Positions 32,774 through 60,973 of a stretch of 64,000 nt of DNA are shown here, piece after piece. The stretch spans positions 8,902,145 through 8,966,144 of the forward strand of contig OX579633.1 of the NCBI GenBank assembly GCA_951230915.1. Direction: 5' to 3'. Within the stretch, counting starts at the first letter, position 1. Every line of letters begins with the position of its first letter. A model generated the notes under the pieces. That model ran no database searches and was not told the origin of the DNA. It was given only the letters and a program-made list of their open reading frames with translations. Made by a program: the position numbers and the translations under genes. The DNA comes from Antitrichia curtipendula. Lineage: Eukaryota; Streptophyta; Bryopsida; Hypnales; Leucodontaceae.

Positions 32774-33660
32774 CGTCACTTCACTTTAAATGAGGGTCAA
32801 TTTTGTTTAATCTTTTTAATTTTAACTAAAGGTCAATTTTGTTTGGGAAAGTGATGTGGATTAGGTGGTCATTTGTTTGTATGTAAGGATCAATTTTGTT
32901 TGGTGAGGTCATAGAGATTGTTTTACGTTACTGAATGTTAGGATATATTTTTATTTCTAAAATTAACTGGATAAACTCATTTCTTACTAAAGGTCAATTT
33001 TGTTTATTTGCTTCATTGTGCAAAAAGGTCCATTTGGGTTGGAGAAGGTTCATAGATTACTACATATAGAGTCATTTGATTTTATATGAGGGTCAGTTTA
33101 ATTTGTTTAGTGAGGTAATGGAGATTTGATCACTTGATTGTATGTGAGGGTCAATTTTAATTTGTGAAGTGATGAAGACCAAGTCACTTGATTGTATGTG
33201 AGGGTCAATTATGTTTGATACATGTGGTAATATGATTTGTTCACTTTAGTGTGTGTGAGGGTCAATTTACTTTTGTGAAATGCACTAGATTACGGATTAC
33301 ATCACTTCACTTCACATGAGGGTCAATTTTGTTACATGAAGTAATGTAGATTAGATCACTCTATTTTATATAAGGATTAGTTTTGTTTGGTGAGGGAATA
33401 GGGATTTTGTCACTTTATTGCACATAAGGGTCTACTTTGTTTGATGAGATAATATGAGTGTGGTGACTTTACTATATGTAACGGTCAATTTTGTTTTGTA
33501 AAATGAAGTAGATTACATGACTTCATCTTATGTGAGGGTCAATTTTGTTCGTCACTTTATTGTATGTAAGGGAGAAATTCTTTTAGGAAAGTAACGTGGA
33601 TTAGGGGATCACTTGATTGTTTGTGAGGATTAGTTTTGTTTGGTGGGATAAAGTGTGAAC

Positions 33661-41198: not shown

Positions 41199-42548
41199 GT
41201 TTAGAAATTCATATTCAATGAGAGATAAGGAGGAAAATTAGAATTTGAAGGGAAGATTGAGAGCTTAGAAGCTTGTTCACTCAAAACTCTAATAGTCTTT
41301 TAAGTTGCAACCACTCAAATTCAATCACAAAATTGGAAGAGACATAGAGAAAATTGGAGAAGTTGTGTTTAGAATTGTGAGTTAGAAGAGGAGGTGAAGA
41401 GTTTAAGATTCAATTAAGATTAGGAGGAAATCTTTGAAAGACATTTTAGGCCACTAGATTTAAATAGAATAATACTGACTTGGATAAGAAGTAGTAGTCA
41501 GTTATTATTTGGGAGCTTGGAACATTATTGTGTGATATATGAGTCAATTCTTGGAATACAATAATGAAGTCTAAATAGTGTTGAAGGAAAAGAAGTAAAA
41601 TAGAAATAAAGAAGAAAGTAGTTAGAATTTTGGTTCCAACTTGTACTAAAACACTATTTTCAAGCAATGAGTATAAATTGATAAAGACCTACATGATGGC
41701 GAATGAAGAACTTAAGAACCCCTAAAACAGCATTCAAGATGATCCCCAAAGTGAGTTAAGTTACTAAGCACTCTAAAATCCCTTGATTTTAAAAGTTGGT
41801 CAATTAAAACGTATTAGCCAAACTAGATCTCCAAGTTAGAGTATTAAGACTAGTTTTTTCAAGTTTTAGATTCAAATTGTTGAAATTTTAGTTTAGAGGT
41901 CTCCAAAAACATCTTAAACTTAGAAACACAATTTAAAACGAGTAAGATAATTAGGAGTGGATGAAGTTTTAGGCTTGGATGAAAGGTTAGAAAAATCACT
42001 CAATTGAGACTAAAATCAGGCTTTAGATAGAAGTTAACATCTATAACTCTCCTCCAAAATTTTGAGTCATTTCTAATTCAGGAACTAAGTAAAAACTATA
42101 GATGAAGTTTGTTGAACCGATTAGTGATTAAACTTCATTCGCTTACAACTTTTGATAGGAAGGTATGATTAAGGTGACTTTTATATTTTTGGAAAGGAAG
42201 AAGGATTATCTACATCATACAAGTTAGTGTAGATAAGATCAGACTAATCCACTTTACACTAAAAATCACCATAGCTTGGCCATTCGGCCAATTAGCAAAG
42301 TAAACATCATATTCGTTATTTTGGGAGAATGGGGGCCTCCCAAAATAACATTGTCCCTTTCTTTGCCTAGGAATTGAAGTAGAGTTGAAGTAAATTTAAG
42401 CGGAAGGGGCTTGAATTTTTGTAATTCGTATATGTAATTTCCATTAAAATGACAGTTTCATATAATTTAGGAATCTCTAACCACTTATTGATTAAAGTTT
42501 TCAATGATTTCGTGAATAAATGCAATGAATGATCTTTATAGAACACCA
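41199..42548. other. AT-rich, no gene seen
   Basis: No supportable ORF or structure. Confidence 0.45.
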
Positions 42549-42720
42549 AGTCATGAGTTCAATGGTTGGTCGTAAGAGGCTATTTATCTCAGTTAGGTGG
42601 TCCAAGTTCGAATCCCATTGAACTCGTTTGAGCGGCTATGAGATATACATGATTTGGTGCTGCTGAGTGAGCTTTATAGGCAGGAAAGTTACAACAACCA
42701 ACCTGATCCAAATCCAAAAG
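42549..42720 (+). mobile_element. tRNA-related SINE-like sequence
   Basis: AAGTTCGAATCCC at about 42604-42616 matches a pol III B box, and a loose A-box candidate (AATGGTTGGTCGTAAG) lies some 45 bp upstream. No cloverleaf can be drawn, so it is not a tRNA gene. No poly-A or poly-T tail defines the end. Confidence 0.35.
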
Positions 42721-43144
42721 TGTGACAAGTGCTTGACATGTCAACTAAATAAAATGTGGTCTTAACCACTATCAATATTTGCTACTTGTATTCAATTTTT
42801 TTAAAACATTTACAAACACAATCAATAGTGAAAATGATGCCAACTTTTACAACATTACATTTATAATTTATGATCAGTATATTAAGTAATAAAAATATTT
42901 GCACTTCTTGTGCAAAATGAAAAGTACATCATACAAAATATAGAAGTAGTTTTAATACAAATCTATAAAATTCAATCATAATATTCCAATCCACTTCATC
43001 TACTCTACAATATGCTATATCAAATTGTATAAAATCATCACTTTGTGCTTACACAAAAGCATTATTAGGGAGAAAACAAAACATATTAACTACAGAATTT
43101 AGTATCAAAGACTACATAGCATCTCCATAGTATCCAGCATCCGC
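42721..43144. other. 3' flank of the transposase-like gene
   Basis: AT-rich sequence with no further coding exon recognised. No terminal inverted repeat could be matched to the other side of the 43-60 kb segment. Confidence 0.4.
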
Positions 43145-46027
43145 TCAATCGGAATTGTATGAAGATAAGCTCCCATTGATGACATCGATCTGAGCCAAAG
43201 GGATTTTAAGAACACACTCCACTGTGTCCTTCTTCACTCTAGACTTCCACGCGGTGACAAGAGACTTTGCGTCTTCCCAGAGCGGATTCTGAGCGTCATC
43301 TACTTTCCAACGCAATCCTTTGGCAGAATCCCACCCGTGGTAGAATTCTTGAACATTTTGCTCACGTGATGTGGGGCGAAAGTATTGAATCAACACACAA
43401 TTAGGATGATCTGGGTTACTGAAAGGATTAGACAAGGCTCTAGCAATCCATATAGGCTTTGAATCACCATCAGCATGTCGGAGGGCGAGAAAATACCCTT
43501 CGTAAACATCACGCGCTACACGGAAAGTTGGCAATGGACGATTGCGGAGTTGCCCCACAAAGGCATCATCCTCAACCAATTCCTCACGAACCTCATCACC
43601 TTCATCAACTTCATCCTCTTCAATTGCTTCGACTCGAGTAGACGGCCAAAACCCATCTCTCAATGTTTGTGACGGATGAATTTCCTCCTTCAAGGCTGCA
43701 TTCACCGCCCGCCAATAGAACACCAAGTGCTCAAACCGTCTCCGGAATTCTCCACTCCCGTCTTCATCGCATAACCCCTCCCAATATTTGGTAAACCCGG
43801 ATAACCCCTTAGAAATGTCATCCACACATCGCATTTCAAGGTGGACAACAGGCAATGGCTCTCCTCGAGGCTATAGACTTTGTCCTTCAGAATCCTCGCG
43901 CCATAATTTGATCCCCTCCCCATTGCTTGGAAGCCAATCACTATCAGTGCAGTACACTTTGTACTTCATGATTGGAATGCCGACCGCATTCAAATAGAAC
44001 TTGAACTGTTGCGCCTTTGTATGGCCAACCAATGCTTCTTCCCCTTCTAAAATGGAGCCTTCTATAAAGGCTTTAAAATTTGGTACCTCCTCAATGAGGT
44101 GAGGAATTGTAGGTACAAAATCCACATCCATGAAGGACTTCATGAGGTGAGGAATTGTAGGTACAAAATCCACATCCATGAAGGACTTCATGAGGTGAGG
44201 GATGGTAGGAAAGTTCTCTTTCTTCAATTGCATACTCCATCTACCAAATAAGGCATCAATGTCATCATGAATGTGACCAACCAACATGAAGCTGACATGG
44301 ACCTCGCGGAAGATCTTCTTCGCCACAAGAAGGGACCAAAACGCGAACACAAATCTATTCTTGTTGTCTCCCGTAGCATTGTCCATTTGAACATTCAAAA
44401 TTGGAGGAAGGGGAGTCGGCGGAATTGCAAGTACGGGTGCTGGCCGTAGGGATGATTTGTAGAGGTTTGCTCCTTGTAGTACCGTGCGAAATAGAGGAGC
44501 AGAACCCGACCCCGCAAACAACTCCCGAGAAGAGTACGTAGGGGGCAATTCAAGGTCTCGCAAAAGCTTTGCAAGTGATCCCACCGTGTAGTTTGAGTCA
44601 TGGAGAAAGATATCAAGACCATAATGCGCGTAACGTACATCACCGTGCCCATGAGCAATCATACCCGTCACTGACACTGGCAACTTCATGAGTCCATCAA
44701 GTTGCTTGCTCTTGTGTGAAAAGACTGGAGAAGCCGTTTTGGCATGATCCATTTTGTTGTGCATAATCGTCAAACACTCATGAGGGTAAGCGCTTGATCT
44801 GTAACGATTTGCATAGTACTGATCCCGATGCGCCCGAGCTGTAGCCAAATGCTTTTCTAAGACAAGGGTCCATTTCCGTTGTAAGCCGACACAAGAATGT
44901 TTCTTCAGAGTCTTCAATCTATCACATTTAGAACAACGCGCAAAATTATCTCCAGGTTTTTTGGCATAGAACTGAGGAAAGCTTGATCTCCTGATCTTGC
45001 TAATGGTAGAAGCTGACACTTCCTTTAATCCAAACACAACATTTGCTGCATTCACCTCGGGAATAGTCTCCTTCCACTTGAAGGTGGCCGGCAAAACCAT
45101 CGACACCACCTTCTCTCCAGAAGGAAGACTATGAGAACGATGTGGCATGTGGTCCGCCGACTGCTCAAGCACATGTTTCAACGTCGCGATAGCCTGCGAC
45201 GTATGCTTTCGAGGCTTCAGCAAGCCTAAGTTACCATGGGCCTGAGCTTGTTGACCACACGCTGCAAAACCCTGGAAGCGATGGAATGTAGACTCCAACA
45301 CCCCCGAAATTAACCTCCACGCTGGCAAACATATGTCAGTCCCCTCCAGAGTCACCACCCTCTTGCCCTGTGCATCACGATGGACCTGTCGATGTACGTC
45401 TAATTTCATGTGGTACCGAAGTTCAAATGTTGTATTGTGGTACATCCGTTCACAAAATGACCGCACCTTCTCCCTAGGAAAAGGCTGAACACAGTTTCTG
45501 GAGCAACAAACCTTGCTCGACACAGAATTGATAGACTCTGTAGTCAACAGGTTAGTGGCCTTCAAACAAGGTATCACAGGAGGATTTCTGATCAAGCTCG
45601 TATACGACCTTCCACGTGAAGAGGAAGGATGCACCAAGTTGGCCTGACTACAGTTCCAGACGTCACAAAGCTCCTGGTCGCGGAGGCTAGCGCCATTCAA
45701 AAACACCTGGTGAATGGGCCATGCTCGGAGAGAATACCTCCAGTCGTCTGGAACATCAACAAGGTGAAGTGACTTGGAGATTTGGACTGCCACAAAAGAA
45801 TCACCAAGAGGACCATCACAACCAAGAATGAGGTTGGAGTTAATGCTGTGACAAATTCCCTCAGCAATAGGTAGACCAGCTGCATTCCTCAGGATGACAA
45901 CCCTAGTCATCCAAAGTCTCTGGGGGATTCCTTCACAATCAGGTATGTCGACAATCTCATCAGGCACATTTTCAATTTCACCATCATCAGACGAGTACTC
46001 CAATGACAGTTGACGGGTAGGATCCAT
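43145..46027 (-). CDS. Gene A: transposase-like protein (DUF7869-like), interrupted by in-frame TAG
   Basis: A single reading frame of 961 codons from ATG at 46027 to TGA at 43145, broken by one TAG (43871-43873) after 718 residues. The central region has a Cys pair (CSKCDRLK), MHNKMDHAKT, then VQMDNATGDNKNRFVFAFW and FMLVGHIHDDIDALFGRW. This order of Asp/His-rich blocks resembles the RNase-H-like transposase-type family often annotated DUF7869 in plants and animals. A role in DNA transposition is inferred from that resemblance. The start is chosen because ATG follows a TGCAG/GC acceptor at 46033-46034, implying a spliced leader. The frame after the TAG (about 240 codons) is protein-like (FTKYWEGLCDEDGSGEF), so the stop looks secondary. 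Divergent from gene B. Confidence 0.75.
43871..43873 (-). other. In-frame TAG within gene A
   Basis: GGACAAAGTCTA-TAG-CCTCGAGGA on the minus strand. The frame is open for 718 codons before and about 241 codons after. The following base context does not match the known strong plant readthrough signal (TAG CAR YYA). Confidence 0.9.
44101..44220 (-). repeat. 48-bp in-frame tandem duplication in gene A
   Basis: The segment coding PTIPHLMKSFMDVDFV is present twice in full (44101-44148 and 44149-44196) and a third, diverged copy begins just beyond. The unit is 16 codons, so the frame is kept. It lies just after the GHIHDDID block. Confidence 0.93.
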
Positions 46028-47480
46028 GATGCCTGCACATGGATGATAGAATGATCAGTACACTCCATCGGACTCTAAAACGGTAAAACAGTCAACACCA
46101 AGACACAATCAAATAAATGAATCAACTCGATTCGAGATGAATGTCAGGAATAACAATCATCTAACAGACTGGTACCAGATTCATGAATGCCGACATAAAA
46201 TAGTTCAGCATTATTAAAAAACACTATCGGTTTAAGAATAAAAAATTTGTCTTCTCCAGAACGTTAAAATTCTCAACTACTCATACGGAAAACTAAAACC
46301 TGTACAACCGAATTGATAAGGAAACCCAAAAGAAAATACAATGATCAACACGAGGATAGCTGAACGTAAAACTCCCAAGTGTCCATTTATCACAAACCAA
46401 GTGAATGAGGATATATTAATGACACAATATCCTCAAACCCGGCCACCATAACCTCGTGCCCAGCATAACATTAGTAGATTCAATGCGGGATGAATTGCAG
46501 CATCATAATATAGTGATGCTCGTAGTTGCTCTCATTGGATATTCAACTCGGTGCAAGTTAAACTTCTGTGTCATAGTTATGACAGTGTTCCACCTAATGA
46601 TGAGCAGTTATGGATGATGTGAATGTTGGTAAATATGAACTTGTTCCAGATCTCGAGTAACAGCGTTCATGAGTCAATATGATTCATCTTGACTTAAGAT
46701 CCCCCAGTGGTAAGATAAATAATGACATCAATATTATTCGACACGTAAAATCAAACCACACAGAATGGAAAATGGCACACTCGTAATTTGGAGGGATCAT
46801 TAACTCATGCTGCAGCAATTCAACTCGCATCGAGTTGAATGCCTTCATAATTATTCATAGTAATACAGAAACAATGTATTACTGGAACAGAAATCCTGGA
46901 GAGTTGAATAACGAATATTAACAACTGGAAGACACACATACCGCAGGATTCTCCTATTCATCTCGCATCGAGTTGAAAGTTGTTTATTAGTACTTGGTAG
47001 AATTCAGTGTCTACTGGTTCATAATCTCAACTCTTATCGCCTTAATGGAACCAGTTTAGTAATAACCGGAAGCCACCAATGAACTGGGAGACTCCAATTC
47101 AACTCGCATCGAGTTGAATACATGTCATTCATTACAATCGACGAGTAGAAAATCATTTCAGCAAAATCTGCCCCGACATGAATTAGTCGACCGCGAAACC
47201 TCAATACTTATTTAAATATTATTTCATTGTAACATTCCGTAAATTCCGGCGATTTTATCGGTCCCGATTCCAATCTCGCTACAGACAGCAATTCCACGAA
47301 CCGTCCAAAACCCAACACAAAATTAGTTTCAACCACAAGATACACCCCTGGTTAAGAAAACGTTGAACAACGAACTGAGAATGCATTGCTTCTACGTCCA
47401 CCAAACAGAAAACTAACGTTATGCAATATATAACATCGGGCGCTTATAATGAAGCGCACCTCATATAGACATACCACACT
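46028..47480 (-). promoter_or_regulatory. Gene A leader region, probable 5' intron
   Basis: An acceptor (CATGTGCAG, AG at 46033-46034) lies 5 bases before the ATG. A possible donor reading GTATGT on the minus strand lies at about 47475; a nearer GTATGT is at about 46949. If the farther donor is used, all five palindromes (46121-47118) are intronic. Promoter position not determined. Confidence 0.45.
46121..47118. promoter_or_regulatory. Palindromic motif cluster upstream of gene A (5 copies)
   Basis: Copies at 46121-46142, 46541-46562, 46817-46840, 46956-46977 and 47096-47118. Consensus: left arm ATTCAACTCG, three variable bases (CAT in three copies), right arm CGAGTTGAAT. Spacings are 420, 276, 139 and 140 bp. 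Arms vary by a few bases, often while keeping complementarity. All copies lie outside coding sequence. Confidence 0.85.
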
Positions 47481-48529
47481 ACAAGTCGCTGTAAATTGGC
47501 AGCCGCTCGATCGAACTCGCAACTCCGCAATCACAAGAAACTAAATGCAATACAACCGCAAGGCTGGACAACAGTACTCCAGAGTGACACACACCAATGA
47601 TACGGTAAATGAACATGTAAACAATTCTGCGTGACCAAGAGCAACAGCAGCAACCACAATAATGCATACAGAAATCTTCAGGTGAGAGGAGACAATCCAC
47701 AGTACACATGCTTAGGCGGGAGAACTCAGGCAGGAACAATTGAACCGAGGGAGATTCAAACGATCACAACCAGAAACGTTGGGGTACTTTTGCAAGGGAA
47801 TCCGTTATTCCTCAAATGCGGGTACGCGCATCCTTAACGAGAGAAAATGCCGGCGCGGGAAAGTGACCGCATCAGTGCTTCACGTCCCTACATTAGTAGC
47901 ATCAATCCGGAAGTTCCTCAAAGAATATCTATTTTCTATTAGAATTTCAGAAAGTTCTACTTATGCATGGACTCACTTTTGAAGAAGAACTTGAGAACTT
48001 TCTTGCATGGTTAAGAATAACCATAAAGTCAAACAAAAGCTCAGCATGTTCGGATCTTCGGGGCTCAGTGGATGCCGAATCCAAAGTGCCGGGTGGCCGT
48101 TACTATTTCAGGTCCTCAATCCTGGAAGACGCTTAAATAGTGCTTCGTGAAGTGCATCTGTATTTGTCACAAGAGAATATAAAGAAATCAAAACGCTCAT
48201 AATTCTGGGCGAAAAACAAATTCTACTATTTCAAGGTCTCAAATCAAAAATGATACACAAAAAAATATTTCCTAAAATAAAAAACATTGCGAATTCAAAA
48301 AGATCTTACGATTGTAAATTCATAAACACTCAAAAACATGTGCTTATTTTACGTCTACTACAACAATACAAACAAACTAAAAAAATCTAAGTAGACATAA
48401 AATCAAAACTAAAGATAAAAAATGGCATGAAAATCGTACCTTTGGACCAAAAAAATGTAGAAATTAAATACACTCTCACAATTGAACATTAACAAGCACA
48501 TTCAAAATGTACTACTTTATGAACTCAAT
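47481..48529. other. Intergenic region, moderately GC-rich, no ORF assigned
   Basis: Probably contains the promoter and first leader exon of gene A (about 47.3-48.1 kb). The overlapping short ORFs on both strands have no domains. Confidence 0.35.
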
Positions 48530-49685
48530 TGAAGACTTTTTCTGTAAAACAACAAACCTCATCAGGACATTAAAGATTGACAAAAATTTTGGAACGCCCC
48601 ACATCAAAACAAGTTGAATTCCACTAGCCCACGGTGCCCTGTATTTTAAAATTTCAAAAATCCCACATGTCATGGATTTTTCACATGTTAGTTGAATGGA
48701 AAAAAAATACATAGAAGTTGGAAATTCTCTCTCATTTGCAAATTTCATGAGCACATTGAGAATGACTAAATTTTGGAACGCCCCACATCAATACAAGTTG
48801 AATTCCACTAGCCCACGGTGCCCTGTATTTTAAAATTTCAAAAATCCCAAATGTCATGGAATTCACACGTTGGGCGATTGGAAAAAAATATACATAGAAG
48901 TTGGAAATTCTCTTTCCATTGCAAATTTCATGAGCACATTAAGAATGACTAAATTTTGGAACGCCCCACATCAAAACAAGTTGAATTCCACTAGCCTACG
49001 GTGCCCTGTATTTTATAATTTCAAAAATTCCAAATGTCATGGAATTCACACGTTGGGTGAATGGAAAAAATATATAGAAGTTGAAAATTCTTTTTCCATT
49101 GCAAATTTCATGAGCACATTAAGAATGACTAAATTTTGGAACGCCCCACATCAAAACAAGTTGAATTCCACTAGCCCACGGTGCCCTGTATTTTAAAATT
49201 TCAAAAATCCCAAATGTCATGGAATTCACACGTTGGGTGAATGGAAAAAAATACATAGAAGTTGGAAATTCTTTTTCCATTGCAAATTTCATGAGCACAT
49301 TAAGAATGACTAAATTTTGGAACGCCCCACATCAAAACAAGTTGAATTTCACTAGCCCACGGTACCCTGTATTTTATAATTTCAAAAATCCCAAATGTCA
49401 TGGAATTCACACGTTGGGTGAATGGAAAAAATATATAGAAGTTGAGAATTCTTTTTCCATTGCAAATTTCATGAGCACATTAAGAATGACTAAATTTTGG
49501 AACGCCCCACATCAAAACAAGTTGAATTCCACTAGCCCACGGTGCCCTGTATTTTAAAATTTCAAAAATCCCAAATGTCATGGAATTCACACGTTGGGTG
49601 AATGGAAAAAAATACATAGAAGTTGGAAATTCTTTTTCCATTGCAAATTTCATGAGCACATTGAGAATGACTAAATTTTGGAACA
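48530..49685. repeat. ~181-bp tandem satellite, about six copies
   Basis: GGAACGCCCCACATCAAAAC recurs at 48591, 48775, 48958, 49138, 49319 and 49499, with a truncated last unit at 49680. Periods are 180-184 bp and the copies are highly similar. Because 180 is divisible by three, repeat-spanning ORFs of 108-112 codons appear; they are not taken as genes. The array sits between the two divergent genes. Confidence 0.97.
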
Positions 49686-50159
49686 CTTTGGACTCATATC
49701 TTCAAAATACAAGGCTGGGGTTATTTCAAATTTATTTTGGAAAGAATGTAGTATAAAAATAAATATTTGAAGTGCTCATGATTACTTAATTCGAAGAATG
49801 TTTTGAACTTCTAGATTTTAAGGAAGAAACGTATTTGAAGTTTGGAATGTTATTTTTAAAAACTTGTGAAAGTTGGAACTACTAATCATTGTGGGATACA
49901 AAGTAGGAAATTAAAGTAGGATTCTTTAAAGATCAAAATAAGAGACTGTATGCGGTGTCCCTAGGCTGAACGCACTTTTTGTCTCATGAAATTCATACTG
50001 ATGTCATTTCATTCGAAGAAGTTACAATTTTTTTTTCAATTCAAGTTGTTTTCATTAATCTTTCTCTAATTCTTTTTTAATAGCCTTGCGCTACTCTAGA
50101 TCATTTAGGAATGGCTTATTTCGTCGGTTATGGGGGAATTTATTTACAAATATTCTCTC

Positions 50160-50290
50160 TTGGAACTCGCGGCTTTAGACAATTTTAGCTTTAGGGCCCG
50201 TGGGCTTAGGAGCTCCCACGGTGACAGGGCCTCGCACGGGGAAAGGGTTTTCTCTCTCCCTCGAAACCCTAGAACCGGGAATTGGAGGTC
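50160..50290 (+). promoter_or_regulatory. Probable promoter / 5' leader start of gene B
   Basis: GGGCCC (50194-50199) and TGGGCT (50201-50206) are Site II-like boxes, followed by CTCTCTCCC and a telobox AAACCCTAG (50264-50272). In plants this pairing marks promoters of proliferation-associated and translation genes. No TATA box is obvious. Confidence 0.5.
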
Positions 50291-51529
50291 GGAAGTGTTT
50301 GCTTCCTGTGTTTGTTTCTTGTTTTGCGGAGTGGGTTTCGGAGTCTGTTGCAAACTGTGTTGCGGAGTGTGTTTGGGGAGGGGTTGGAGCTGTTCGCCGC
50401 GTCTGCTTGGCTGCTCGTCTTGGCTGCTCAGACTCACCCTACTCATCGCGTGAGGTTGGTTGAATTGCTATGCGGGGTGATTTCAAAGCGGGGTCAGTTT
50501 GTGGAGGCCAGAGGGGCGTCATTCTCCAACGGGAAGTTTCAACGCGTGGTTTCCACTGGCTGGGGTGTTGTAATTCAGGGTTTGAGGTTCAAGTGTGGGG
50601 ACTTGAATTTGGAGAGGATTTTGTGGCTGCTCATTGCGTGACTTCGGTGAACTGGTACGCGGGGGTGACTTGAGGTCATAGTCTACTTGCGGAGGGGTGT
50701 AATCGCTGATGAGGGTTTCATTGCGTGGTTTCAACGAACTGATGGAGTGAGCTTGGAGTGTGGGACTGTGGGCGACCTGAAATTGCAGAGGGCGTGATCG
50801 TGAGCTGCTCATTGTGTAACTTTGGTAGCACAGGTAGGAAGGCGTGATTTGAGATCGGAATGTGATTGTTGATTAGGGTCTAGGGTTCGTATTCAATTGA
50901 TTGGGTTGTTTCAACCAACTCGACGGTGTGAGCTTGGAGTGTGGGCGACCTGGTTTTTAGAGGAGGGTTTGTATTTTGGCAGAACAACTCCGCAAATGCG
51001 GTGTTTATGGACGACCTCCAGTTTTGAATTTGTTTACATTTGGACCAACTAGGGTGTGAGAGTTGACGTGTGAGCTTCGGGTGTGAGTTCAGTTGTAAAT
51101 TTTGAATCGGAATAGGTAGGTCGTCAGAACTGTACGGGAAAGCTTCCGCTTCCGCTTCATACAAGTGAAGTTGATTCTCCGAGGTGCTATCGTCGGGCGT
51201 CCTTGGGCGACGTGAAAGCTTCCGCTTCATGCAAGTGAAGTTGAATCTCCGAGGTGCTATCGTCAGGCATTCCTGGGTGATCTCAAGGCATTCTTAGTTC
51301 ATCCACAAATCTGCAACTGCGGTGTGGTCCAACTAGGGTGTGAGAGTGAAGGATGTAAGCTGAGGGTGAGAGCTGGATTTGGATCTATGGACTGTCTATA
51401 GAGTCCGCGGTAGAGCAGCACCTGCATCGGCGGAGGTGATCGGTGGAGCTGCGTTCAAGGGAGTTGAGAGGTGGATGGAGGCGACCTGCACTGTAGCAAA
51501 ATACACGGTGCCAACACAAATTGAAGGAG
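50291..51529 (+). other. Gene B leader, exon L1 (probable non-coding)
   Basis: A GC-rich region ending at a strong donor GAG/GTAAGT (GT at 51530). It contains degenerate GTGAGCTTGGAGTGTGGG units and a 70-bp tandem duplication (TCCGCTTCAT at 51151 and 51221). Its start is uncertain. Short ORFs on both strands are not conserved-looking. Confidence 0.45.
51150..51290 (+). repeat. 70-bp tandem duplication in leader
   Basis: TCCGCTTCATACAAGTGAAG and the rest of the unit repeat from 51221 with a few substitutions. Confidence 0.9.
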
Positions 51530-51980
51530 GTAAGTTACTGCACTACAAACCGCGAGCAATTTAGTGCAAACATGTTAGCGTGATATTGAATGTATGCAAT
51601 GTCAAATTTTTTCATTAGTTTTTGTTGAAGTCTTGCAGACTTCTGTATTACTTGCTGTTGCATTGTGTGACTGTGGGTGGGTTAATGTCACAAGGGCTGC
51701 ATTTGAATACACTTGCTAAAACGTGTGTTAACTTCCATTTCGTTTAGAAAATGTGGCAGAATTGGCTTGATGTGGCTTAATGTTTAAGAAATGTGATTGT
51801 ATTCAGAATTGTTGTTGAATGCTGTCTTCTATTGTTTCCTTGTTTGTGCCATGGTTGACGCAGTCAATCCAGCTAGAGAGTTTTTCAGGAGGATGGTAGC
51901 ACTCGAAGATAACATTGAAAAAAAATAATGTGTATTTGCAGGATCATGATCTTAACTAATCTTATTTGGAATTCTTTCAG

Positions 51981-52090
51981 ATTATAGTAAGGTGGGAGTG
52001 CATTGCTGTGCGATTGGAGTCTTGTGGTTGATATTCTACATCAAAGCGTGCAAATTTTACTTTGGTACAGCATCGCCGAGACAAAATCAG
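51981..52090 (+). other. Gene B leader exon L2
   Basis: A 110-bp exon between acceptor TTCTTTCAG (AG at 51979-51980) and donor CAG/GTAAGC (GT at 52091). One frame is fully open and, spliced to L1, encodes a hydrophobic stretch (CCAIGVLWLIFYIKAC), but it runs out of frame with the downstream ATG. It could be an upstream ORF or chance. Confidence 0.55.
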
Positions 52091-52175
52091 GTAAGCTGTC
52101 TGCATAAATTCATTTCCATATCAATAAACTAGAAAGACGTATTATAGGATTGCAAAAACGAATTAAAAACCTCCA

Positions 52176-52966
52176 ATTCATCTCGATTGAGTTGAATGTG
52201 AGACTTCTCTAAAAACACCAGTTCATCTCGGCCGAGTTGAAATCTAAAATCTCCTAGTGAACTAGATTCTAAGGGGCGATTTCAGTAGTGGCCGAAGCCA
52301 GAACTGTCGATGCGATTCAACTCGCATCGAGTTGAACTGAGCACGCACAATAACCAAAGCCGTAGAAAGCAGACAACCCAGCTCATAAAATCAGCGAACG
52401 ACCAGAGATTCAGCTCGCACAGAATTGAATACGAGCCTTACAAACGTAATCCAAGAGAGCGAAACCGGGACATGATATCACATGTGAAGGACTTGCAATT
52501 CAACTCGCATTAAGTTGAATATGACCCCCATCGCGAACTGGATCACATTAACACAATAAATGAAAAAACAAAAGTTAGTTAACGACCCCGGACTGGAGTA
52601 CCGAGACGTTGAATTATGAAACCTAATGAAGGGAAGAGCTATCATGCATAAAAGATCCAAACATTCAACTCGGTGCAAGTTGAATGAATAGGCAAGCAAC
52701 TGAAAGAACCACGTACACAAGAGAAACAGTTCGAGAATAACGAGAATAATAAATTCCTGTTCCATGCAACACGGGGTGAACAGGTAGGAACAAATAAGAC
52801 CAGTTAATGAAACACAACCCTTAGCAAGTCAACTCGGACCAAGTTGAACTGTATCCATGGAGGAATCCGTAAACCTAACTCCGGAACTGAATGATTTACT
52901 ACTCAAACAGTAATGAAGAGTACCGTAACACCTTAGAAGATACAATTCAACTCTTGTCGAGATAAA
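52176..52966. promoter_or_regulatory. Palindromic motif cluster in the leader intron of gene B (8 copies)
   Basis: Copies at 52176-52197, 52221-52242, 52316-52339, 52408-52430, 52498-52520, 52663-52685, 52827-52850 and 52945-52966. They carry the same arms as upstream of gene A (ATTCAACTCG and CGAGTTGAAT, centre CAT, GTG, GAC and others). Several are spaced about 90-95 bp apart. All lie within the 979-bp intron 52091-53069, bounded by GTAAGC and CATGCAG. Confidence 0.88.
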
Positions 52967-53071
52967 CTATAAAGTCAGACACCCGCGGCGAGAACAAGCG
53001 CTTAGAGATATTCCAGAGTTATTTCACGACTGAATGTACATAGAGAACTAACCAAATTACTGCATGCAGGC

Positions 53072-56000
53072 ATGGAGAACCAAGTGCAGTGCCTGGAGCC
53101 GTTCTTCAAGCGCTATGATGTACCCGAAGAAGAAAAGCGAGAGTTTGGAAACGATAGTACCCTCGGAGAGTGCTGGGAGTGGAAAGAACCCGAAAGGGTG
53201 GACTACTGGACAATAGTCCTAGTACCAACAACCTCTCACCTTGCATTTCGGACAAAGTTTGACAAATCTCCCGGAACACTTCCCGTTTCACTCAGGGAGT
53301 CCATCACTGTCTTCAGCAGTGGCACGCAGGGAAGAATCTTCATTACATGTGAAACTATCGATCCAGACGAGTCCGAACCGTATCACTTCTCCTACGTTGT
53401 AGACGCGCGGAAGACAATCAACGTTGTGGACGCGCGGAATATCCAAATTCACATCGACAACAAGCGCTGGGAAGGCGGAAACGGCGAACCCCTAGCGCCG
53501 CTAGCCCTCTTATCCAGATTGAACCAGCTAAAGCTTGGATTCGCCAACATGCAGGTCAAGATACTAAACAAGTCCAAGGATATGAGACCCCTAGTTGTCA
53601 CCAGAGACTACAGCAGTCAAGGAGCCAGCTAGAGCTCACTCGCAATCGGGACACCTGAGACGGGGAAGAGTCGCACTGGAAGAATGAAGCACACTGACAG
53701 AACCTCACGTGGACTTCCAGGAGATTCATCTGTCAGACCTGCAAAGAGAGGTGGAAAGAAAGCAACAGAAATAGAAGCCTCTCCACCCGAGGAAAGCATG
53801 GTTTTCGAGGTCACAGATATACCCCAGGACATAGGGGGCGGAGTTAAGGAAGTAGATTACGAGGAGGCGACCCGCACATTTGACGCTTATTGGGCAGAGT
53901 GCACAGATTCGTACGTTCCAAAAATTGGAAATAAGTTTGTGATAAAGATCGATGAGTTAGAAACTCCTCCAGAAAACCTAAATATCCGCGGCCTGGAAGA
54001 GCAGGGCGTGAAGAAGGCCCTAAACTTCCTCATTAACATGCCAGACCCAGACAAGAAGATGACGCTCTGCGTTATGCCCCAAAACCTCACTGCCAAACCC
54101 GAGACCTTCGAGGAAGTGATGGATGGAATGTTTTATATGGTCAATGGGCAATACACAGTGGAGGCGTCGAAGCGTATGCAGAAGATGCCTAAACTAAAAA
54201 CCAAGGCGGAGAAGTTTCAATCGTGGGAATGCTTTGTTGTGTGGAACAAGGACGATCACGTCATCCACAAGATATCGGCGTTCTACAATCGGGTGAATCA
54301 TTTCCAAAATTTCAATCCAACATGGGCTACAAATATAATTGGTGCACGATACTTGTGGGAGAAAGCCGGATGTCCACCGCCAAATAAAGAGCCCACAGAG
54401 CTTGGAAAGGTCATAGAGAAGACCCGGCCAAAATCAGTGAAGGACTCCATGAACCAGAAGAAATTTCATGTGAGTTTCTATTCCCGGATATGGCTCCCCT
54501 TACAGCATATTGTTTGATTTAACTCGATGCGAGTTGAAATGTACGAGAGATAGTGCCTAAAGAACGTGTACCCTGCAGGATTTTGCTGCTGCTATTCGAC
54601 TTCGGTTCTTGATGATTGACATCAAGAAGTCCAGAGCGGAAATAGGGAAAGGGAAGGCACTAGATATCCACAACGAGCTGAAAATTATTACGGCATCGAA
54701 AGATGTGTACGATCTTTGGAGCAAGCTCATATCCTCAAACAGTCAGGGAGAGCTGACCGATCCTGACAGCCTTCTCAAGTTCAATCAATTCAAGAACTGG
54801 GACAGTGAGAAGGATGGCATCATTACTCGTGAGTTCTTCAAGCAGTTGGGGAACTACAACGAAGGTGATCTCAAGAGGTTGGCGTTGCACTTGCTGGGCA
54901 GAACACCTAATCGATTATTGTCGTACCTGAAGGTGACAATCAGAAACTTCAAGTCAGTGCTTGCTGACTGCTACACGTCCAGGAAATGGCTTGAGAGATG
55001 CAAGCGGAAGCAAGTGGTTCGAAGGCAAATTCACAATTTAAAGAAGAGTTTGATGCTGTTTAACGGCGAAGGAAGTTTCCGGAGGGAGAAGTGGAAAGAT
55101 TTCAAGAGGGTCTACAATGTAACGAAGGCCACAAAGAACACCTTGATCACGGGGCCTCCTGATGACTACTTCTCACTTGCCAAAATGCCTTCCAACAAGA
55201 ATAAGAGTGTCAATGAACTTTCACCGATGGCTGCGGAGTTCTTTAAGATATTCATGGGGAGCAAAGGCAAGTTTGTTAGGCCCCAAGCCAGGGCCTTCTA
55301 CAGGGCTTACAACATGGAGAAGGATGAACTTGGCGAATGGGACATGCATGTATGGGAGGATTCTACAAACTCCACAACCAAGCTTGCAGTGATTGACTTC
55401 TGCAACATTCCAAGCATCCTTGACAAGGAGACCTCGAACGACAGAGAGCATTACTTCGAAAACTTCATGAACATTGTGAAGGACATGAAGCAGCCAGAAG
55501 CGACTGACCCAGAAGTGTGGCTGTGGATATGCGGAGAAAAGGACGTTGAAGTTGATCTCGTCCAGTTCATCAAGACGTCTACTTATGGAGCTTCGTACTT
55601 GCTGCACTACGCGGAGTACGTGCCATCCATGTTTGAGAGAATTGGAGATGTGTCAGAGCGAAGAAACAAGGCAAAAGAGTCGGTCCAAGTTCTGTTTCTC
55701 ATCAAGAAAGGGGTGAAGTTGGGCGATAAGAAGATCCCCAAGAAGTTTGAGACCTCGGACAATGGCAGGTACTCTAGATCCAGAGTCTCAAACGATGTGG
55801 ACTTCCGCATCTACAACACTGAGTTGCAAATGGAGTTTTACATTCAAGTTCTGGAACTACTTGCCAAGCCGACAGACAAAATTGTTTCACACTTTGCAGG
55901 AGGCAAGATTATCTGCGCAGCGTGGGTAAGTTGTGGCACTTCTCCATGGATTCATTATCTCGCGCCGATTCCAACTAGTCAACAAAAAAACACTCAATGA

Positions 56001-57285
56001 CGATGATGTTTAACTCGAAGCGAGTTGAATGCTCGGGTAGTGTATACCTGTATTGGTCTGTGTAGTTCATGGTTGATGTTTATTCACTTTGATGAACTCG
56101 ACTACACCTAATGTAGATTACGAGTGTTTTCTAATACTATTTCATGGGCTGCAGATGCATTCGTTAGATCACTTTGTGATCGGTAACTCAAGCTATGGCT
56201 CGAAATTCCTAAGTCTGTCCATTAATTCTGAAAATCTTGACAAAGATGACTTCCGCACTGGCACTTATTATGTGGACTCGAGAGTTCATTCTAAGCGAGC
56301 GTAGAAAGGTGCTTCTAGCTCTGCAAGGGAGAAGAAGAAAATGTCAGCCAATGATGAGGCTGCTCATGATGGTTCCAGGAGGGAGGCTTCTGTTAGCGTG
56401 CATGATGAAGAGAAGTGCGAGAGAGAAGAAGACAACGCATTGGAGGAGGGGTGGCAGGATCCAGTGGACGACATGATTCTGGACTTGGTGGCTGATGAGG
56501 GTGGGACACCGAGTGCTACGCCAGATACTTCAGATGTTGGTGGTGGGGCTGGAGTATTTAATGTTGCACCAAACACCTCCATTGCAGCACCTGATGCAAG
56601 CGACATGCGGGGGTCATCCGACACCTCTGCGCATCATAATCTTACGCCGGTCTCCGTTTCCACACCGCTTGGAACCCAATTGGATCAGACACCGAAATCT
56701 GATAGACGCCCTACACCAAAGAGGAAGAGGCCGGCGTATCCTTCAGCCCTGCAGGACAAACAGTGGATGGTTGATCTAATAACCCAAAACAGGGAGGAGA
56801 ACGAGAGGGTGCGGCAAGAAAACAGGGAGGAGAACAAGAGGGCGCGTGAAGACAACCAACTCATGATCAATACTATGATAGCAAATATGTCCAAGATTGT
56901 GGCAAAGAGTGCCCTCGAGGTGGCGATGCAAGTGATGGATATGAAGCCCTTGGCAGTAGCGCCGGCCGGAACATCTTCGCAACTCCTAATTGCCAACAAT
57001 GCCCAAGGATCTGCGGACAGCGCAATGCATCATCAGGCAACCTCTACGACTCCCTCTTTGAATACGGCGGCGCCAGACGTCATTCCTGTGCAACTGTCAC
57101 CTAGATCATCTTCCGTCCAACCGGAATCTGTCGTTGTGCCGTCCTCTACGAACCAAGTGGAATTGCAGGATGTGCCTGTCGTTGCGTCAGCCGACCCAGT
57201 TGTTGAGGTCACTCCAGCGGAGGAAATAGAGGCTGAGGAGTCACATGACCCTATGGCTCTTGTACCTTCAGGTTGTTCCCAGTGA
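53072..57285 (+). CDS. Gene B: ParB-like plus DNA-methyltransferase-like protein (3 exons, two in-frame TAGs)
   Basis: Exons 53072-54469, 54579-55925 and 56155-57285 join in phase 0 at GTGAGT/TGCAG and GTAAGT/TGCAG sites. The ATG lies 2 bases after the leader-intron acceptor. The first ~186 codons are unrecognised. A ParB/sulfiredoxin-like segment follows (LNIRGLEEQGVKKALNFL, TLCVMP, FYMVNGQYTVEASKRM; nt 53940-54187). Exon 2 carries an amino-methyltransferase-like pair in motif IV-then-I order: LAVIDFCNIP (55383-55412, where active enzymes have DPPY) and IVSHFAGGKIICAAW (55881-55925). ParB-methyltransferase fusions are common in bacteria and phages. Here the catalytic tetrapeptide is degenerate, so activity is doubtful. 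Exon 3 has a basic NLS-like TPKRKRP and a Glu/Arg-rich coiled coil (about 56780-56890). TAGs lie at 53630 and 56302. It may continue into the phosphatase-like exons. Confidence 0.65.
53630..53632 (+). other. In-frame TAG 1 in gene B
   Basis: GGAGCCAGC-TAG-AGCTCACTC. The same frame is open upstream from 53072 and downstream through 54469. No convincing intron removes it. Confidence 0.85.
54517..54540. promoter_or_regulatory. Palindromic motif in the 109-bp intron of gene B
   Basis: ATTTAACTCG, ATG, CGAGTTGAAAT: a near-perfect copy of the family motif inside the intron 54470-54578. Confidence 0.85.
56008..56030. promoter_or_regulatory. Palindromic motif in the 229-bp intron of gene B
   Basis: GTTTAACTCG, AAG, CGAGTTGAAT inside the intron 55926-56154. 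Both 8-bp inner arms are perfectly complementary. Confidence 0.85.
56302..56304 (+). other. In-frame TAG 2 in gene B
   Basis: AAGCGAGCG-TAG-AAAGGTGCT. It separates the end of the methyltransferase-like region from a 327-codon open tail in the same frame. The residues on each side are basic (HSKRA before, REKKK after), suggesting one continuous region. Confidence 0.85.
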
Positions 57286-57297
57286 CTCTTTGCCTCT

Positions 57298-57321
57298 TTT
57301 TCAACTCGATTCGAGTTGAAA
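57298..57321. promoter_or_regulatory. Palindromic motif in the last motif-bearing intron
   Basis: TTTCAACTCG, ATT, CGAGTTGAAA: a perfect palindrome around the centre. It lies just after the TGA at 57283, or inside the intron 57272-57485 if CAG/GTTGTT is the donor. Confidence 0.85.
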
Positions 57322-57485
57322 CTCCTTCCGTTCTGTTTTGTTTTTTGATAGCGGTTAGTGACAGGCTTAGTATCACTAGGTAAAACCACATGTACAGTTT
57401 TTAGTAACAGATCCATATATGAGACACTCTTCTGTATATTGTATTCTTACAAAAACAATTATGTGGTCAATTGGAGTAATCGCAG

Positions 57486-59906
57486 GCTCATTGAATTTGG
57501 AAATGAATGATGCATTTATCCATGATGCTTTGGATAGTTGTCCTTCTGCCGCCACTCCTACCTTTGATTGCTTGATGTCAGTACCGGCACTAGACGATTC
57601 CCTTGAAAATGTAGAGGCAGTGTGTCCACAATCTCATGGACCGCACATACCCAGTGAAGATGTGGAAGCTTCCCATCCTGTGGATGTGGGATTCGGCATT
57701 ACCGATGATGCACTCTTGGAAATCGATATTCCTCAGCCAGAATCCATGGTTGCCGCAAGAGTATCCTCGCCGGGTCACGATACAAAGGTTGGGGTAAACT
57801 ATTTGCATTTCCTTGTGACTTGTTCTATATGCGTCTTTTTAATATGTTTCCTACTCTGTCGTCTTTTATTATTTTATCTCTGTCCTCTTTGTTTCTTAGA
57901 ATGGGGAGTGTCCATTTTTCTTACATTGCGCTTTCAGTATGCAAAATGTGGTAGACAGTGCATTCAATTTAACTGTCTGCACATTTTGCTGTAATTCCTG
58001 AACAGGATAACAGCCAAGCGAGCGTTCTAGTAGAGACGAAGGGATTGATCCCATTCACGTCCGGGGTGACTAGGAAATGGCTGAACGTCATCCTGGATCT
58101 GAATGGGGTTCTCTGCATCAGTGAGGATAAGAAATATCATACAAGGGAGAACAGATACTTGGAACCTGAAGAAATATGTCCTGATTTAATAACCGTCGTT
58201 ATTGGTGTCAAGAAAGTCACTATTCGACCCCATTGTTTGATGGTTCTCCGGGAGTTCTCGTCTTTTGCAAACCTATCCGTGTGGAGCTCCATGAAGAGGT
58301 CCACAGTTGTGAAAATATGCAATTACTTGTTTGAAGGCTTAGAACCCCCCTTATATATCTTCGGGCAAGAGCAGTGCGATATATTGAAGTGTAGGAATCA
58401 GTATGGGAAAGTAGGCAACTACAAGGTGAAGGGAACGAACAAGGACTTGTTAATGAAACCCTTGGAGAAATTGTTCCAGATGAAGGACTCCATTTTTTCC
58501 AGGGAGAATACTATTATTGTTGATGACAGTCCAGCCAAACACATTATGAACAATCCTGAAAATGTCATTCTGTTTCACCCGTGGTCGTATGAGGGCGAAG
58601 GGGCGTCAAACAAAATCCTCATTTCTCATCTTCTTCCTTATATTCAACGACTGCATTCGGAGAGGCCTTGGGAATTGTATCCCTTTCGTAGAGATAACAT
58701 TTTTGGATGCTGGCACCTAGTTCAAGAAGAGGATTTAGCCGAGTTCAGGGAGCTGAGGGAGGTAGTTGTGATTTCCAATTCTATTTTTCTTGACTTTGAG
58801 AAGAGAAATCCTGGTCGTACAATTCCTTTTGAGAAATCGGATAGACCTCAACATAGAAAGGTCAAATTAGATCACTCGCTGATTTGCATCCGTCACGTAT
58901 CGAAATCACGATGAGTAGGAGTGGCACTAGGTATTGGTGTGACTTAGTGGGTTTACGGTTCCGAAGTTGTTGGTGTAGTAATTGTACATGGTTGTCAAAT
59001 TTGTCAAGTAAATGGATATATGCTTTTAAATCCCAATGGAAATTTGTAAGTGTCCTTCTCGTTAAGCATTGTTTTGACAACGGTTTCTGTCTTTGTTCCC
59101 AGGCTTTTCGTGCTACATCGGTAGTTCAATTTGAATGTCAAATCAAGTGTGCTGCCTCTGTTGATTCGTTCTCTGACTATGGACAGTTTGCTATATCGCA
59201 AAGCGGATTGGGTCACATCATGTATTCCGCAACTACAGCGCAATCAACTATGGACTTCTCCATGAAGTCCGTTGATGACGGTGTTGTTGATAGTCCGCCC
59301 ACCGCAAGAAAGGGCTCTCACCTTGTGAACTCCCCTTCTCCTCTAAAATGTCGACCACAGTCGCCCATTCCTCAAGACCGCTCTCCAGGGATTTTGGTGA
59401 TGCAAAGGAAACTCTATCATGAAGAGATGAGTGGTCACTTCACGGTGAGACGCTTTGCTGATTTCTAAATGTTTGTTCCCGATTTTTTTAAAGAAGGTTT
59501 GCATGATGTTATAGGTCATTTGTCCATTGTCTCACTTGTTTAGTTTCTTATGTAGGGTGATGAAGTTATTTTGAGGTCCACTACTACCGGTTTGATTAGT
59601 TCTCAATTGACAACGCCTTTGAATTCTAATTATGAAGAGCAAGCTACATCATCTAAACGCCGTCGACGTATTTTGCGTCCAGGCTTCATAGCAGAGATGG
59701 TCGCACGTCGCAAATGCAAGTCGCATGGAGTAATCCCTAAATCAATTTATTCAGGGCCCCATGTTAAAGATGCTTGGGAGGAGAGGTCATTGGTGGCTCA
59801 AAGGAAGCAAATTGCTAGGACAGATTCCCACAAAGGTAGTAGGTACAGTCAAGGACCAGAGATATATGCAACAATAGAGAAGTTGAAGAGCAAAACGCAT
59901 TTGTAG
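57486..59906 (+). CDS. FCP1/NLI-type phosphatase-like protein (4 exons; possibly the 3' part of gene B)
   Basis: Exons 57486-57793, 58006-58860, 59103-59444 and 59556-59906 join in phase 0; acceptors are clear and the donor at 58861 (GTCAAA) is weak. If that donor is not used the frame stops at 58914. Exon 2 holds a HAD-fold FCP1-like domain: VILDLNGVLC (58090-58119), SVWSSMKRST (58277-58306), then KDLLMKPLEKL and IIVDDSPAKH. In active enzymes the first motif is DxDx(T/V); here the second Asp is Asn, which should weaken dephosphorylation. The last exon is basic (SSKRRRRILRPGF). The first exon can be joined to gene B by a phase-1 intron (57272-57485), giving one ~1,900-codon gene. A separate gene starting at the ATG near 57503 is the alternative. 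Confidence 0.6.
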
Positions 59907-60071
59907 TAGTTCTATGTAGAATACTGTAGGTGTCTGGAGGGAAATAGGGACAAAAGATATATTTGTATAGAACAATTTTGAAACTCAAAATTGTATAGCA
60001 AGCATGAATTGTTGTAACACTAGTAGTCGAGTACATGTTTGTTTTTTATGATGGTGACATGTATACTCTTG

Positions 60072-60486
60072 GGGGTAGCAATTTGTGAAAGAGGTCACAC
60101 GGTGGTTTAAGTGATGGTTCGTGAAGTGGGTGCCGTAGTATTTAAACGTTTTGAGTATTTTAAACTACAATTGCCAACTCAATCCAAAATGGACATGAAC
60201 TGAAGAACGAAATTTAGAAAACTATAGAAATAAGCTATGTGATTCTCCTTTACAAGTACTCTTATAGATTGCAGTTCACATGCTACGGTGTGTAAGAGTA
60301 CTTGTGAAGGAAAGTCACATAGCTTGTTTCTATAGTTTTCTAAATTTCGTTCTTTAGTTCATGTCCATTTTGGATTGAGTTGGCATTTGTAATTTACAAT
60401 GCATTTCGTTTACCTTTAAACACTACGGCAACTTCTTCATTAATCATCACCCTAAACACCGTGCGACCTTCTTCGCAAGTTGCTAC
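60072..60486. mobile_element. Long inverted repeat (fold-back / MITE-like)
   Basis: Arms 60172-60264 and 60292-60384 are about 94% complementary over 92 bp with a 27-bp loop. Weaker complementarity extends outward to about 60072 and 60486. No ORF. The left arm begins about 170 bp past the last stop of the plus-strand gene, so the element may be a MITE or an inverted duplication of its 3' flank. Confidence 0.85.
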
Positions 60487-60973
60487 TGAAAGGGTTGCAA
60501 TTGTCTCCATTTCAAGTACTTTGAGACTAGTAATACAACTTTGCAACTAGTAGTGCTTTACAGAGTCACTTTTCATAGTGATTGTACATTCATTGATTTA
60601 AGATATTTACATTCAATGATTACTTGAATCAGTAAATTGTTGTGTAATTTGTAATGATCACATGCTATTCAAGGCATCTAGTACTATGTGCATAATCTCT
60701 ATGTCACTGCATTGCAAATGTTGTATTTGTAGAGGTCAAATTCTATTCAAAACGTGATTTGTAGTGTGAAAAAAAACTCCCATTTCCGTGGAAATCTCCC
60801 ATTTTAACGAATATGATGTTAGTAGGTTAAAATCAACTTGTGTGCATTGCAAGATTATGCAAGTTAGGAATACTTAGGATATCTCAAAAAGCTCCATTGC
60901 TTAGAAGGCGCAATGGACAACAAACCTAGACACCTATTAGCTAAAAAAAAAGATTTTAATTGATTTAGTTACT
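60487..60973. other. AT-rich, no gene seen
   Basis: No supportable feature. Confidence 0.45.

What the first reader, a model, noticed from the sequence alone, without database searches (positions are those of the whole stretch)
46121..57321. Sixteen copies of one 23-bp palindrome, all outside exons, serving two divergent genes
Copies cluster in the leader regions of A (5) and B (8), and single copies sit in each of three short downstream introns of B. None is in an exon or in the phosphatase-like introns after 57.8 kb. Paired arm changes often keep symmetry (GTG/CAAG, GGCC variants), which suggests binding by a dimeric protein or hairpin formation in RNA. It recalls iterons, parS sites or transposase subterminal repeats, but placed in introns.
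Basis: seen in the sequence. Interest (0 to 1): 0.9.

Follow-up and report, generated by a model that had tools for sequence, protein, structure and literature searches.

The report
Palindrome arrays inside moss transposon introns
A large two-gene moss transposon carries sixteen matching palindromic DNA sites outside the exons of its own genes, and related transposons in the same genome carry the same layout with a different, mirror-symmetric word, which suggests that each family marks its own genes with a private address read by a paired protein.

Summary
In detail: 16 palindromes (TTCAACTCG N2-3 CGAGTTGAA), none in an exon. They belong to an 18.5-kb DNA transposon, 42303-60820, with inverted ends AACATCATATTCGTTA and a 4-bp target duplication. 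Gene A is a DUF7869 protein; gene B has a ParB/sulfiredoxin-like domain and is followed by a NIF-phosphatase frame. The genome holds at least 62 A and 94 B copies.

All 30 A copies with cut flanks (the window's included) carry 4-13 palindromes upstream of the start. In five further elements B carries them in leader and coding introns. The word differs by subfamily: TTCAACTC, TTTAACTC, TTCAAGTC, TTCACCTC, with the consensus changed in both arms. Of 27 perfect genome-wide copies, 24 lie within 15 kb of an A or B copy, the other 3 in an element fragment or motif array.

Best reading: sites of a dimeric, element-specific DNA-binding regulator, probably element-encoded, working like Arabidopsis VANC anti-silencing sites but with unrelated protein and motif. 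RNA hairpins are less likely: arm changes within sites are mostly uncompensated. The binder is unidentified; no binding, methylation or expression data were available.

The parts
42303..60820 (.). whole DNA transposon, 18,518 bp
   Evidence: Left ends of three of four fetched paralogues (L037, L038, L039) align exactly to 42303 (the fourth, L040, only from 42436), and the right end of L035 exactly to 60820; inverted ends and duplicated AGTA outside
42303..42328 (+). left terminal inverted repeat AACATCATATTCGTTA...; target duplication AGTA at 42299-42302
60795..60820 (-). right terminal inverted repeat; target duplication AGTA at 60821-60824
43145..46027 (-). gene A, DUF7869 (PF25273) protein, presumed transposase; in-frame stop at 43871-43873 and a 48-bp tandem duplication at 44094-44209
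   Evidence: Pfam E 3.7e-41; 171 relatives, 120 listed, incl. Ceratodon and Physcomitrium; 62 copies in the genome; duplication
46120..46142 (+). palindrome A1 (leader of A)
46541..46563 (+). palindrome A2
46818..46840 (+). palindrome A3, perfect
46956..46978 (+). palindrome A4
47097..47119 (+). palindrome A5, perfect
52091..53069 (+). probable 5'-UTR intron of B (donor CAG/GTAAGC, acceptor TGCAG two bases before ATG) holding 8 palindromes
52176..52197 (+). palindrome B1 (2-base spacer)
52221..52242 (+). palindrome B2 (2-base spacer)
52315..52337 (+). palindrome B3
52408..52430 (+). palindrome B4
52498..52520 (+). palindrome B5
52663..52685 (+). palindrome B6
52827..52849 (+). palindrome B7
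52945..52967 (+). palindrome B8
53072..54469 (+). gene B exon 1; about residues 81-220 of the piece 53636-54469 form a ParB/sulfiredoxin-like domain; in-frame stop at 53630-53632
54517..54539 (+). palindrome B9 in coding intron 1 (54470-54578)
54579..55925 (+). gene B exon 2, no Pfam family at its cut-off
   Evidence: 94 copies in the genome
56008..56030 (+). palindrome B10 in coding intron 2 (55926-56154)
56155..57271 (+). gene B exon 3; in-frame stop at 56302-56304
57299..57321 (+). palindrome B11 in probable intron 3 (57272-57485, weak donor)
57976..58911 (+). NIF (NLI-interacting-factor) phosphatase-like reading frame; could be spliced in phase to B, not shown
   Evidence: Pfam E 5.2e-13; found downstream of B in C2, C3, C5:11.87 Mb and C173 elements

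Best explanation
The palindromes are binding sites of a homodimeric, element-specific DNA-binding regulator, most likely encoded by the element itself, that recognises the element's own transcription units through arrays placed in their introns. Element families use private half-site words (TTCAACTC, TTTAACTC, TTCAAGTC, TTCACCTC), as a rule the same in A and B. The likeliest purpose is self-recognition for transcriptional control, above all protection from silencing, as VANC proteins do in Arabidopsis VANDAL elements. Introns are used because they tolerate arrays that exons cannot hold. Shown: the transposon, the arrays, their absence from B exons, their recurrence across subfamilies, the mirror-symmetric change of the consensus word, the ParB/sulfiredoxin-like fold in B. 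Inferred: that a protein dimer binds, that the element encodes it, that B rather than A is the better candidate, that the A leader is an intron, and the anti-silencing purpose.
For: (1) 30 of 30 A copies with cut flanks (62 found; the window's own copy is one of the 30) have 4-13 sites in the 1.5 kb upstream, against at most 2 in 1.5 kb downstream, in the first 1.5 kb of the coding match, or in three first-order shuffles each. (2) In the window and five other elements B has 7-13 sites in its leader and 1-2 in coding intron 1, although B exon 2 is only 41-59% identical; intron 2 holds sites in 5 of 6. (3) 0 of 78 sites in four elements lie in B or NIF exon blocks, 17,662 of 72,879 bp. (4) A and B, or B and the nearest A, share the word in 5 of 6 elements. 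(5) The consensus 8-base word is mirrored in both arms in all four types; types follow the A tree, 4 changes against a shuffled mean of 10.3, though close copies alone make such labels cluster. (6) Arms outlast the rest of the intron in 3 of 4 comparisons: 0.88 v 0.79, 0.98 v 0.88, 0.84 v 0.67 (P 0.003, 0.001, 0.0004, bases taken as independent); the fourth shows nothing, 0.944 v 0.941. (7) Three database proteins that run past the B intron 1 donor and one that starts upstream of A encode peptides compatible with the palindrome at 0-1 mismatches: the best 4 of 254,286 frame positions in 141 proteins. (8) VANC21 occupies introns, intergenic and terminal noncoding regions of VANDAL21, and its motif arrays diverge between copies (PMC5735166, passages).
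Against: No binding, methylation or expression data. The binder is unidentified; a host protein family with several specificities is not excluded. Words are not wholly clean: in the C5:11.87-Mb element the A leader mixes TTCAACTC and TTTAACTC arms while the B leader mixes TTTAACTC and TTTAAGTC arms, and the C173 coding introns hold both TTCAAGTC and TTCAACTC sites. One array (L052) has no recognisable A or B sequence within 2.4 kb. VANC motifs are 9-bp and head the same way. The A-leader donor could not be placed, so those arrays might be in promoter or 5'-UTR exon. In the C173 element sites are C/C or G/G at position 6 and never mixed, which hairpins would also predict. The whole-model TM-scores to ParB are low (0.29 query, 0.43 target), sulfiredoxins and serine kinases match too, so B is placed in the fold superfamily, not in ParB proper.
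Confidence: 0.58

Rival explanations
1. The palindromes act as RNA hairpins in the introns, controlling splicing, nuclear retention or small-RNA production of the element's transcripts.
For: Every site lies in sequence that is probably transcribed and spliced out; consensus words of subfamilies change in both arms together; sites in the C173 element are C/C or G/G at position 6, never mixed.
Against: Within the window arms do not covary (P 0.82), 5 of 16 sites have a T-T or A-A mismatch at position 6, and G-U pairs (9) are no commoner than A-C mismatches (8) on the sense strand. Over 109 distinct sites in the 30 A leaders no type shows significant compensation (P 1.0, 0.84, 0.09, 0.06), G-U 57 v A-C 41. 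In the C5:11.87-Mb element 4 of 7 leader sites of B have a G-G or C-C mismatch at position 6.
Confidence: 0.15
2. The sites are enhancers for a host transcription-factor family; the transposon has exploited host factors.
For: Promoter-proximal and first-intron placement suits enhancers; the host is a plant with large factor families (recalled).
Against: Four mirror-symmetric words in one genome that follow the element tree and are mostly shared by A and B; 24 of 27 perfect copies of one word lie within 15 kb of a listed A or B copy and the other 3 in a fragment or arrays. The other three words were not scanned genome-wide (unanswered; TTCAAGTC not asked).
Confidence: 0.15
3. The sites are transposase-binding repeats needed for excision and integration.
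For: Gene A is the presumed transposase; many transposons carry repeated transposase sites (recalled).
Against: No site at 16/20 or better lies in the terminal 3.8 kb (left) or 3.5 kb (right) of the window element; sites track gene leaders and introns instead.
Confidence: 0.07
4. Neutral relics of tandem duplication in introns, without function.
For: Arrays do grow by duplication: 62-bp units around three A sites, 43-88-bp and about 70-bp periods in the C2 element. In one of four comparisons arms are no better conserved than the intron.
Against: Arms outlast surrounding intron in 3 of 4 comparisons; sites persist in the same introns at 41-59% protein identity; consensus words change symmetrically.
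Confidence: 0.05

Closest known systems
VANDAL transposons and VANC anti-silencing proteins of Arabidopsis (PMC5735166, passages seen; PMC10398659, abstract and outline seen)
   Same: Element-specific short motif in many copies in noncoding parts of a plant DNA transposon, introns of its genes included; motif arrays diverge between related elements; duplication-driven arrays
   Different: There the motif is 9 bp (YAGTATTAY) in one orientation; VANDAL is a Mutator-like element with other proteins (recalled); here 21-23-bp palindromes, DUF7869 and ParB-like proteins, 4-bp target duplication. Binding and loss of methylation are shown there, not here
ParB-parS, Noc and KorB systems of bacteria and plasmids
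   Same: Gene B has the ParB/sulfiredoxin fold; several palindromic sites lie in and around its own gene
   Different: No recognition domain or CTP binding tested; the GERR-like motif (recalled) reads NGQHS in most of the B family; sites are 21-23 bp in introns of a eukaryotic transposon
En/Spm (CACTA) TnpA subterminal motifs (recalled)
   Same: Repeated sites for an element-encoded protein that also affects methylation
   Different: Spm sites cluster at the element ends; here the ends carry none

Membership tests
VANC/VANDAL anti-silencing system | Element-specific motif in many copies in noncoding regions, introns included | tested here: met
VANC/VANDAL anti-silencing system | Motif diverges between related elements | tested here: met
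   four words
VANC/VANDAL anti-silencing system | VANC domain and Mutator-like transposase in the element (names recalled) | tested here: not met
   Pfam scans of the A, B and NIF reading frames pass a cut-off only for DUF7869 and NIF; the first 49 codons of B exon 3 were not scanned
VANC/VANDAL anti-silencing system | Protein binds the motif and removes methylation | not testable with these tools
   no binding or methylation data
ParB-parS family | ParB N-terminal (CTPase/sulfiredoxin-like) fold | tested here: met
ParB-parS family | CTP-binding sequence motifs (GERR-like; recalled) | tested here: inconclusive
   by eye on alignment A3: consensus INGQHSVEASKR at that place
ParB-parS family | Helix-turn-helix domain that reads parS | not tested
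ParB-parS family | Several palindromic sites near the gene | tested here: met
CACTA subterminal-repeat system | Motif clustered at both element ends (recalled) | tested here: not met
   no site at 16/20 or better in 42303-46119 or 57322-60820
Cut-and-paste DNA transposon | Terminal inverted repeats and target-site duplication | tested here: met
   AACATCATATTCGTTA ends; AGTA in the window and CTAG at the two C7 ends; two elements only
Cut-and-paste DNA transposon | RNase H-like DDE transposase | tested here: inconclusive
   A model poor, pLDDT 54; no significant PDB sequence match

The most novel reading that the evidence does not exclude
A eukaryotic transposon runs a ParB-parS-like system: the ParB-fold protein B loads as a dimer at palindromes in the introns of the element's own genes, spreads over the element as a clamp, and with its associated NIF (CTD-phosphatase-like) domain keeps the element's transcription open against host silencing; new element families arise by symmetric changes of the palindrome together with the protein.
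Probability: 0.17. Interest if true: 0.92.

Novelty: new variant of a known kind. Interest (0 to 1): 0.76.

Why it matters
Few transposons are known to carry private address words for their own regulators (recalled; VANDAL is the case I read about). Here one moss genome holds at least four words, with tens of element copies, in a transposon for which my searches (listings only) showed no description. That makes the co-evolution of a DNA-binding protein and its sites testable with natural variants, outside Arabidopsis and with an unrelated protein. A ParB-like fold next to palindrome arrays in a eukaryotic transposon would also open the question whether the parS clamp principle exists in eukaryotes.

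Tried and rejected
RNA covariation within sites: none significant. Viral-contig scans with A and B: 3 pattern stretches each, none a relative. PDB sequence searches with A, B exon 1 and B exon 2 alignments: nothing below E 0.2. NCBIfam and PHROGs gave no name for A or B. An idea that some elements lack B because none lay within 10 kb of A was wrong: B exon 2 lies 12 and 16 kb away there. Literature: 'DUF7869' in no held paper; searches for moss transposons with palindromes or ParB (15 of 41 papers listed, 8 of 435, 2 of 2, 2 of 2) listed nothing whose title or abstract start describes this element; none of those papers was opened. The A structure model is too poor to use. Host: a moss by the closest named protein relatives of A, species not determined.
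Full report
What is there. A pattern search at up to 3 mismatches gives 13 hits against 0.01 expected. A scan with spacers 0-5 gives exactly 16 sites at 16 of 20 or better, all between 46120 and 57321, against 4 in 20 Markov copies of the window. Fourteen have a 3-base spacer and two (52176, 52221) a 2-base spacer.

The family. In the 400-Mb genome (303 contigs) there are at least 62 copies of A and 94 of B exon 2 (the tool calls these lower bounds). 36 of 62 A copies have a B copy upstream, head to head, within 30 kb; 1 has another arrangement and 25 have none that close. The pair on contig C7, 53 kb apart, is one of those 25.

Arrays in relatives. The first-look loci gave 1.5 kb on each side of 30 of the 62 A copies, the window's own among them. 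A search for any repeated palindrome (8-base arms, 5 bases between), without using the window's word, found 4-13 sites upstream in 30 of 30, and never more than 2 downstream, in the first 1.5 kb of the coding match, or in three shuffles each. The words are TTCAACTC (6 copies; three of them with mixed TTCAACTC/TTTAACTC arms), TTTAACTC (19), TTCAAGTC (2) and TTCACCTC (3). An AG acceptor lies within 16 bases of the start codon in 28 of 30; in the other two (L016, L029) the start could not be placed. So the A arrays probably lie in a 5'-UTR intron, but no strong donor could be placed for A. For B of five more elements: C2, word TTCACCTC, 13 leader sites, 1 in intron 1, 1 in intron 2; C3, word TTTAACTC, 7, 2, 2 and 1 in intron 3; C5 at 11.87 Mb, TTTAACTC with some arms TTTAAGTC, 7, 2, 0 and 1; C173, TTCAAGTC, 8 leader sites, 2 in intron 1 and 3 in intron 2 of both TTCAAGTC and TTCAACTC kind, and one site whose exon or intron status is unclear; C5 at 31.2 Mb, TTTAACTC, 7, 2, 2, the stretch ending before intron 3. 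The A leaders of C2, C3 and C5 at 11.87 Mb hold 15, 6 and 6 sites. Word sharing between A and B is clean in five of the six elements; in C5 at 11.87 Mb both leaders are mixed. For C173 and C5 at 31.2 Mb, A is the nearest copy, 38 and 13 kb away. None of 78 sites in the window and the first three elements lies in a B or NIF exon block as found by tblastn (exon 3 of C2 was only partly found). Scrambled half-sites give 0.2-0.4 hits on average, at most 6.

Specificity. The perfect word TTCAACTCG N3 CGAGTTGAA occurs 27 times in the genome and its reversed control never. 24 of 27 lie within 15 kb of one of the 32 A and 23 B copies put into that comparison. The other three were fetched: one is intron 3 of a B fragment, one is in the leader array of a B copy, and one is in an array of six sites without recognisable A or B within 2.4 kb. 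The other three words were not scanned over the genome: two searches did not complete and TTCAAGTC was not asked.

Database records. Proteins similar to B exon 1 sometimes run past the splice donor of intron 1. Five such tails of nine or more residues exist (P0129, P0136, P0137, P0138, P0139). Three fit the palindrome without a mismatch, and an N-terminal extension of A relative P0025, outside the part that aligns to A, fits with one. These are the four best of 254,286 frame positions in 141 proteins; at two mismatches one exonic chance hit (P0018) appears. P0137 and P0138 fit only a looser pattern drawn after seeing the tails. Intron-2 tails fit less well: P0122 at 2-3 mismatches, P0124 at 3, P0121 not within 3. 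The species of these records is unknown and could include the host.

DNA or RNA. Among the 16 sites arms do not covary (P 0.82), and G-U pairs (9) are about as many as A-C mismatches (8). Over 109 distinct sites of the 30 A leaders, compensation is not significant in any word class (P 1.0, 0.84, 0.09, 0.06); G-U 57, A-C 41. Against this, sites in the C173 element are C/C or G/G at position 6 without mixtures. A homodimer with two specificities predicts that as well as a hairpin does. Mixed sites exist elsewhere (4 of 7 B-leader sites of C5 at 11.87 Mb; two in L029). I favour protein binding to DNA at independent but equal half-sites.

Constraint. Palindrome arms are better conserved than the rest of the intron in three of four comparisons: B v L035 0.88 v 0.79, A leader v L006 0.98 v 0.88, A leader v L007 0.84 v 0.67. 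B v L036 shows no difference (0.944 v 0.941).

How it may work. Arabidopsis VANC21 binds a 9-base motif arrayed in introns, intergenic and terminal noncoding parts of VANDAL21 and causes loss of methylation through the element; motif arrays diverge with their proteins (PMC5735166, passages seen; PMC10398659, abstract and outline seen). The distribution here is strikingly alike, including introns of the element's own genes and subfamily-specific words. The proteins, the palindromic motif and the transposon type differ. The ParB-like protein B is my first candidate for the binder because ParB proteins read palindromes as dimers (recalled), but its DNA-reading domain was not identified, and A is not excluded.

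Noticed in passing
43871-43873 (gene A), 53630-53632 and 56302-56304 (gene B): Three in-frame TAG stops in otherwise open frames; A and B copies without internal stops exist in the genome, so the window copy is probably decaying
   Followed up: partly
57272-60820 versus 52091-57271, compared with L035: Right part of the element is evenly 93-95% identical in introns and exons while the left part is 76-94% with exon-intron contrast; suggests recombination or gene conversion near 57.27 kb
   Followed up: no
about 60175-60385: Inverted-repeat (foldback) stretch near the right end, bounds by eye; matches L035 partly in opposite orientation, MITE-like insertion or inversion
   Followed up: no
48559-49684: Six tandem copies of a 180-bp unit between genes A and B, 94% matches
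   Followed up: no
50150-52090: G+C-rich, G-skewed stretch upstream of the B leader intron, with 70-bp and other short repeats; probably 5'-UTR exon(s) of B
   Followed up: no
L041/L045, 13408-14239 and 458-1748 of the oriented C2 stretch: In the TTCACCTC family the arrays look like true tandem repeats with periods near 70 and 43-88 bp
   Followed up: no
L052 (G000:C5:33123901-33126301): Array of six palindromes without recognisable A or B sequence within 2.4 kb; possible orphan or very diverged leader
   Followed up: partly
16 sites in the window: In plus orientation most CG-to-TG or CG-to-CA changes fall in the right arm, the left-arm CTCG being kept in 15 of 16 sites; may reflect methylation decay
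   Followed up: no
21397-23157 and 29885-33651: Long degenerate satellite-like tandem repeats, related to each other
   Followed up: no
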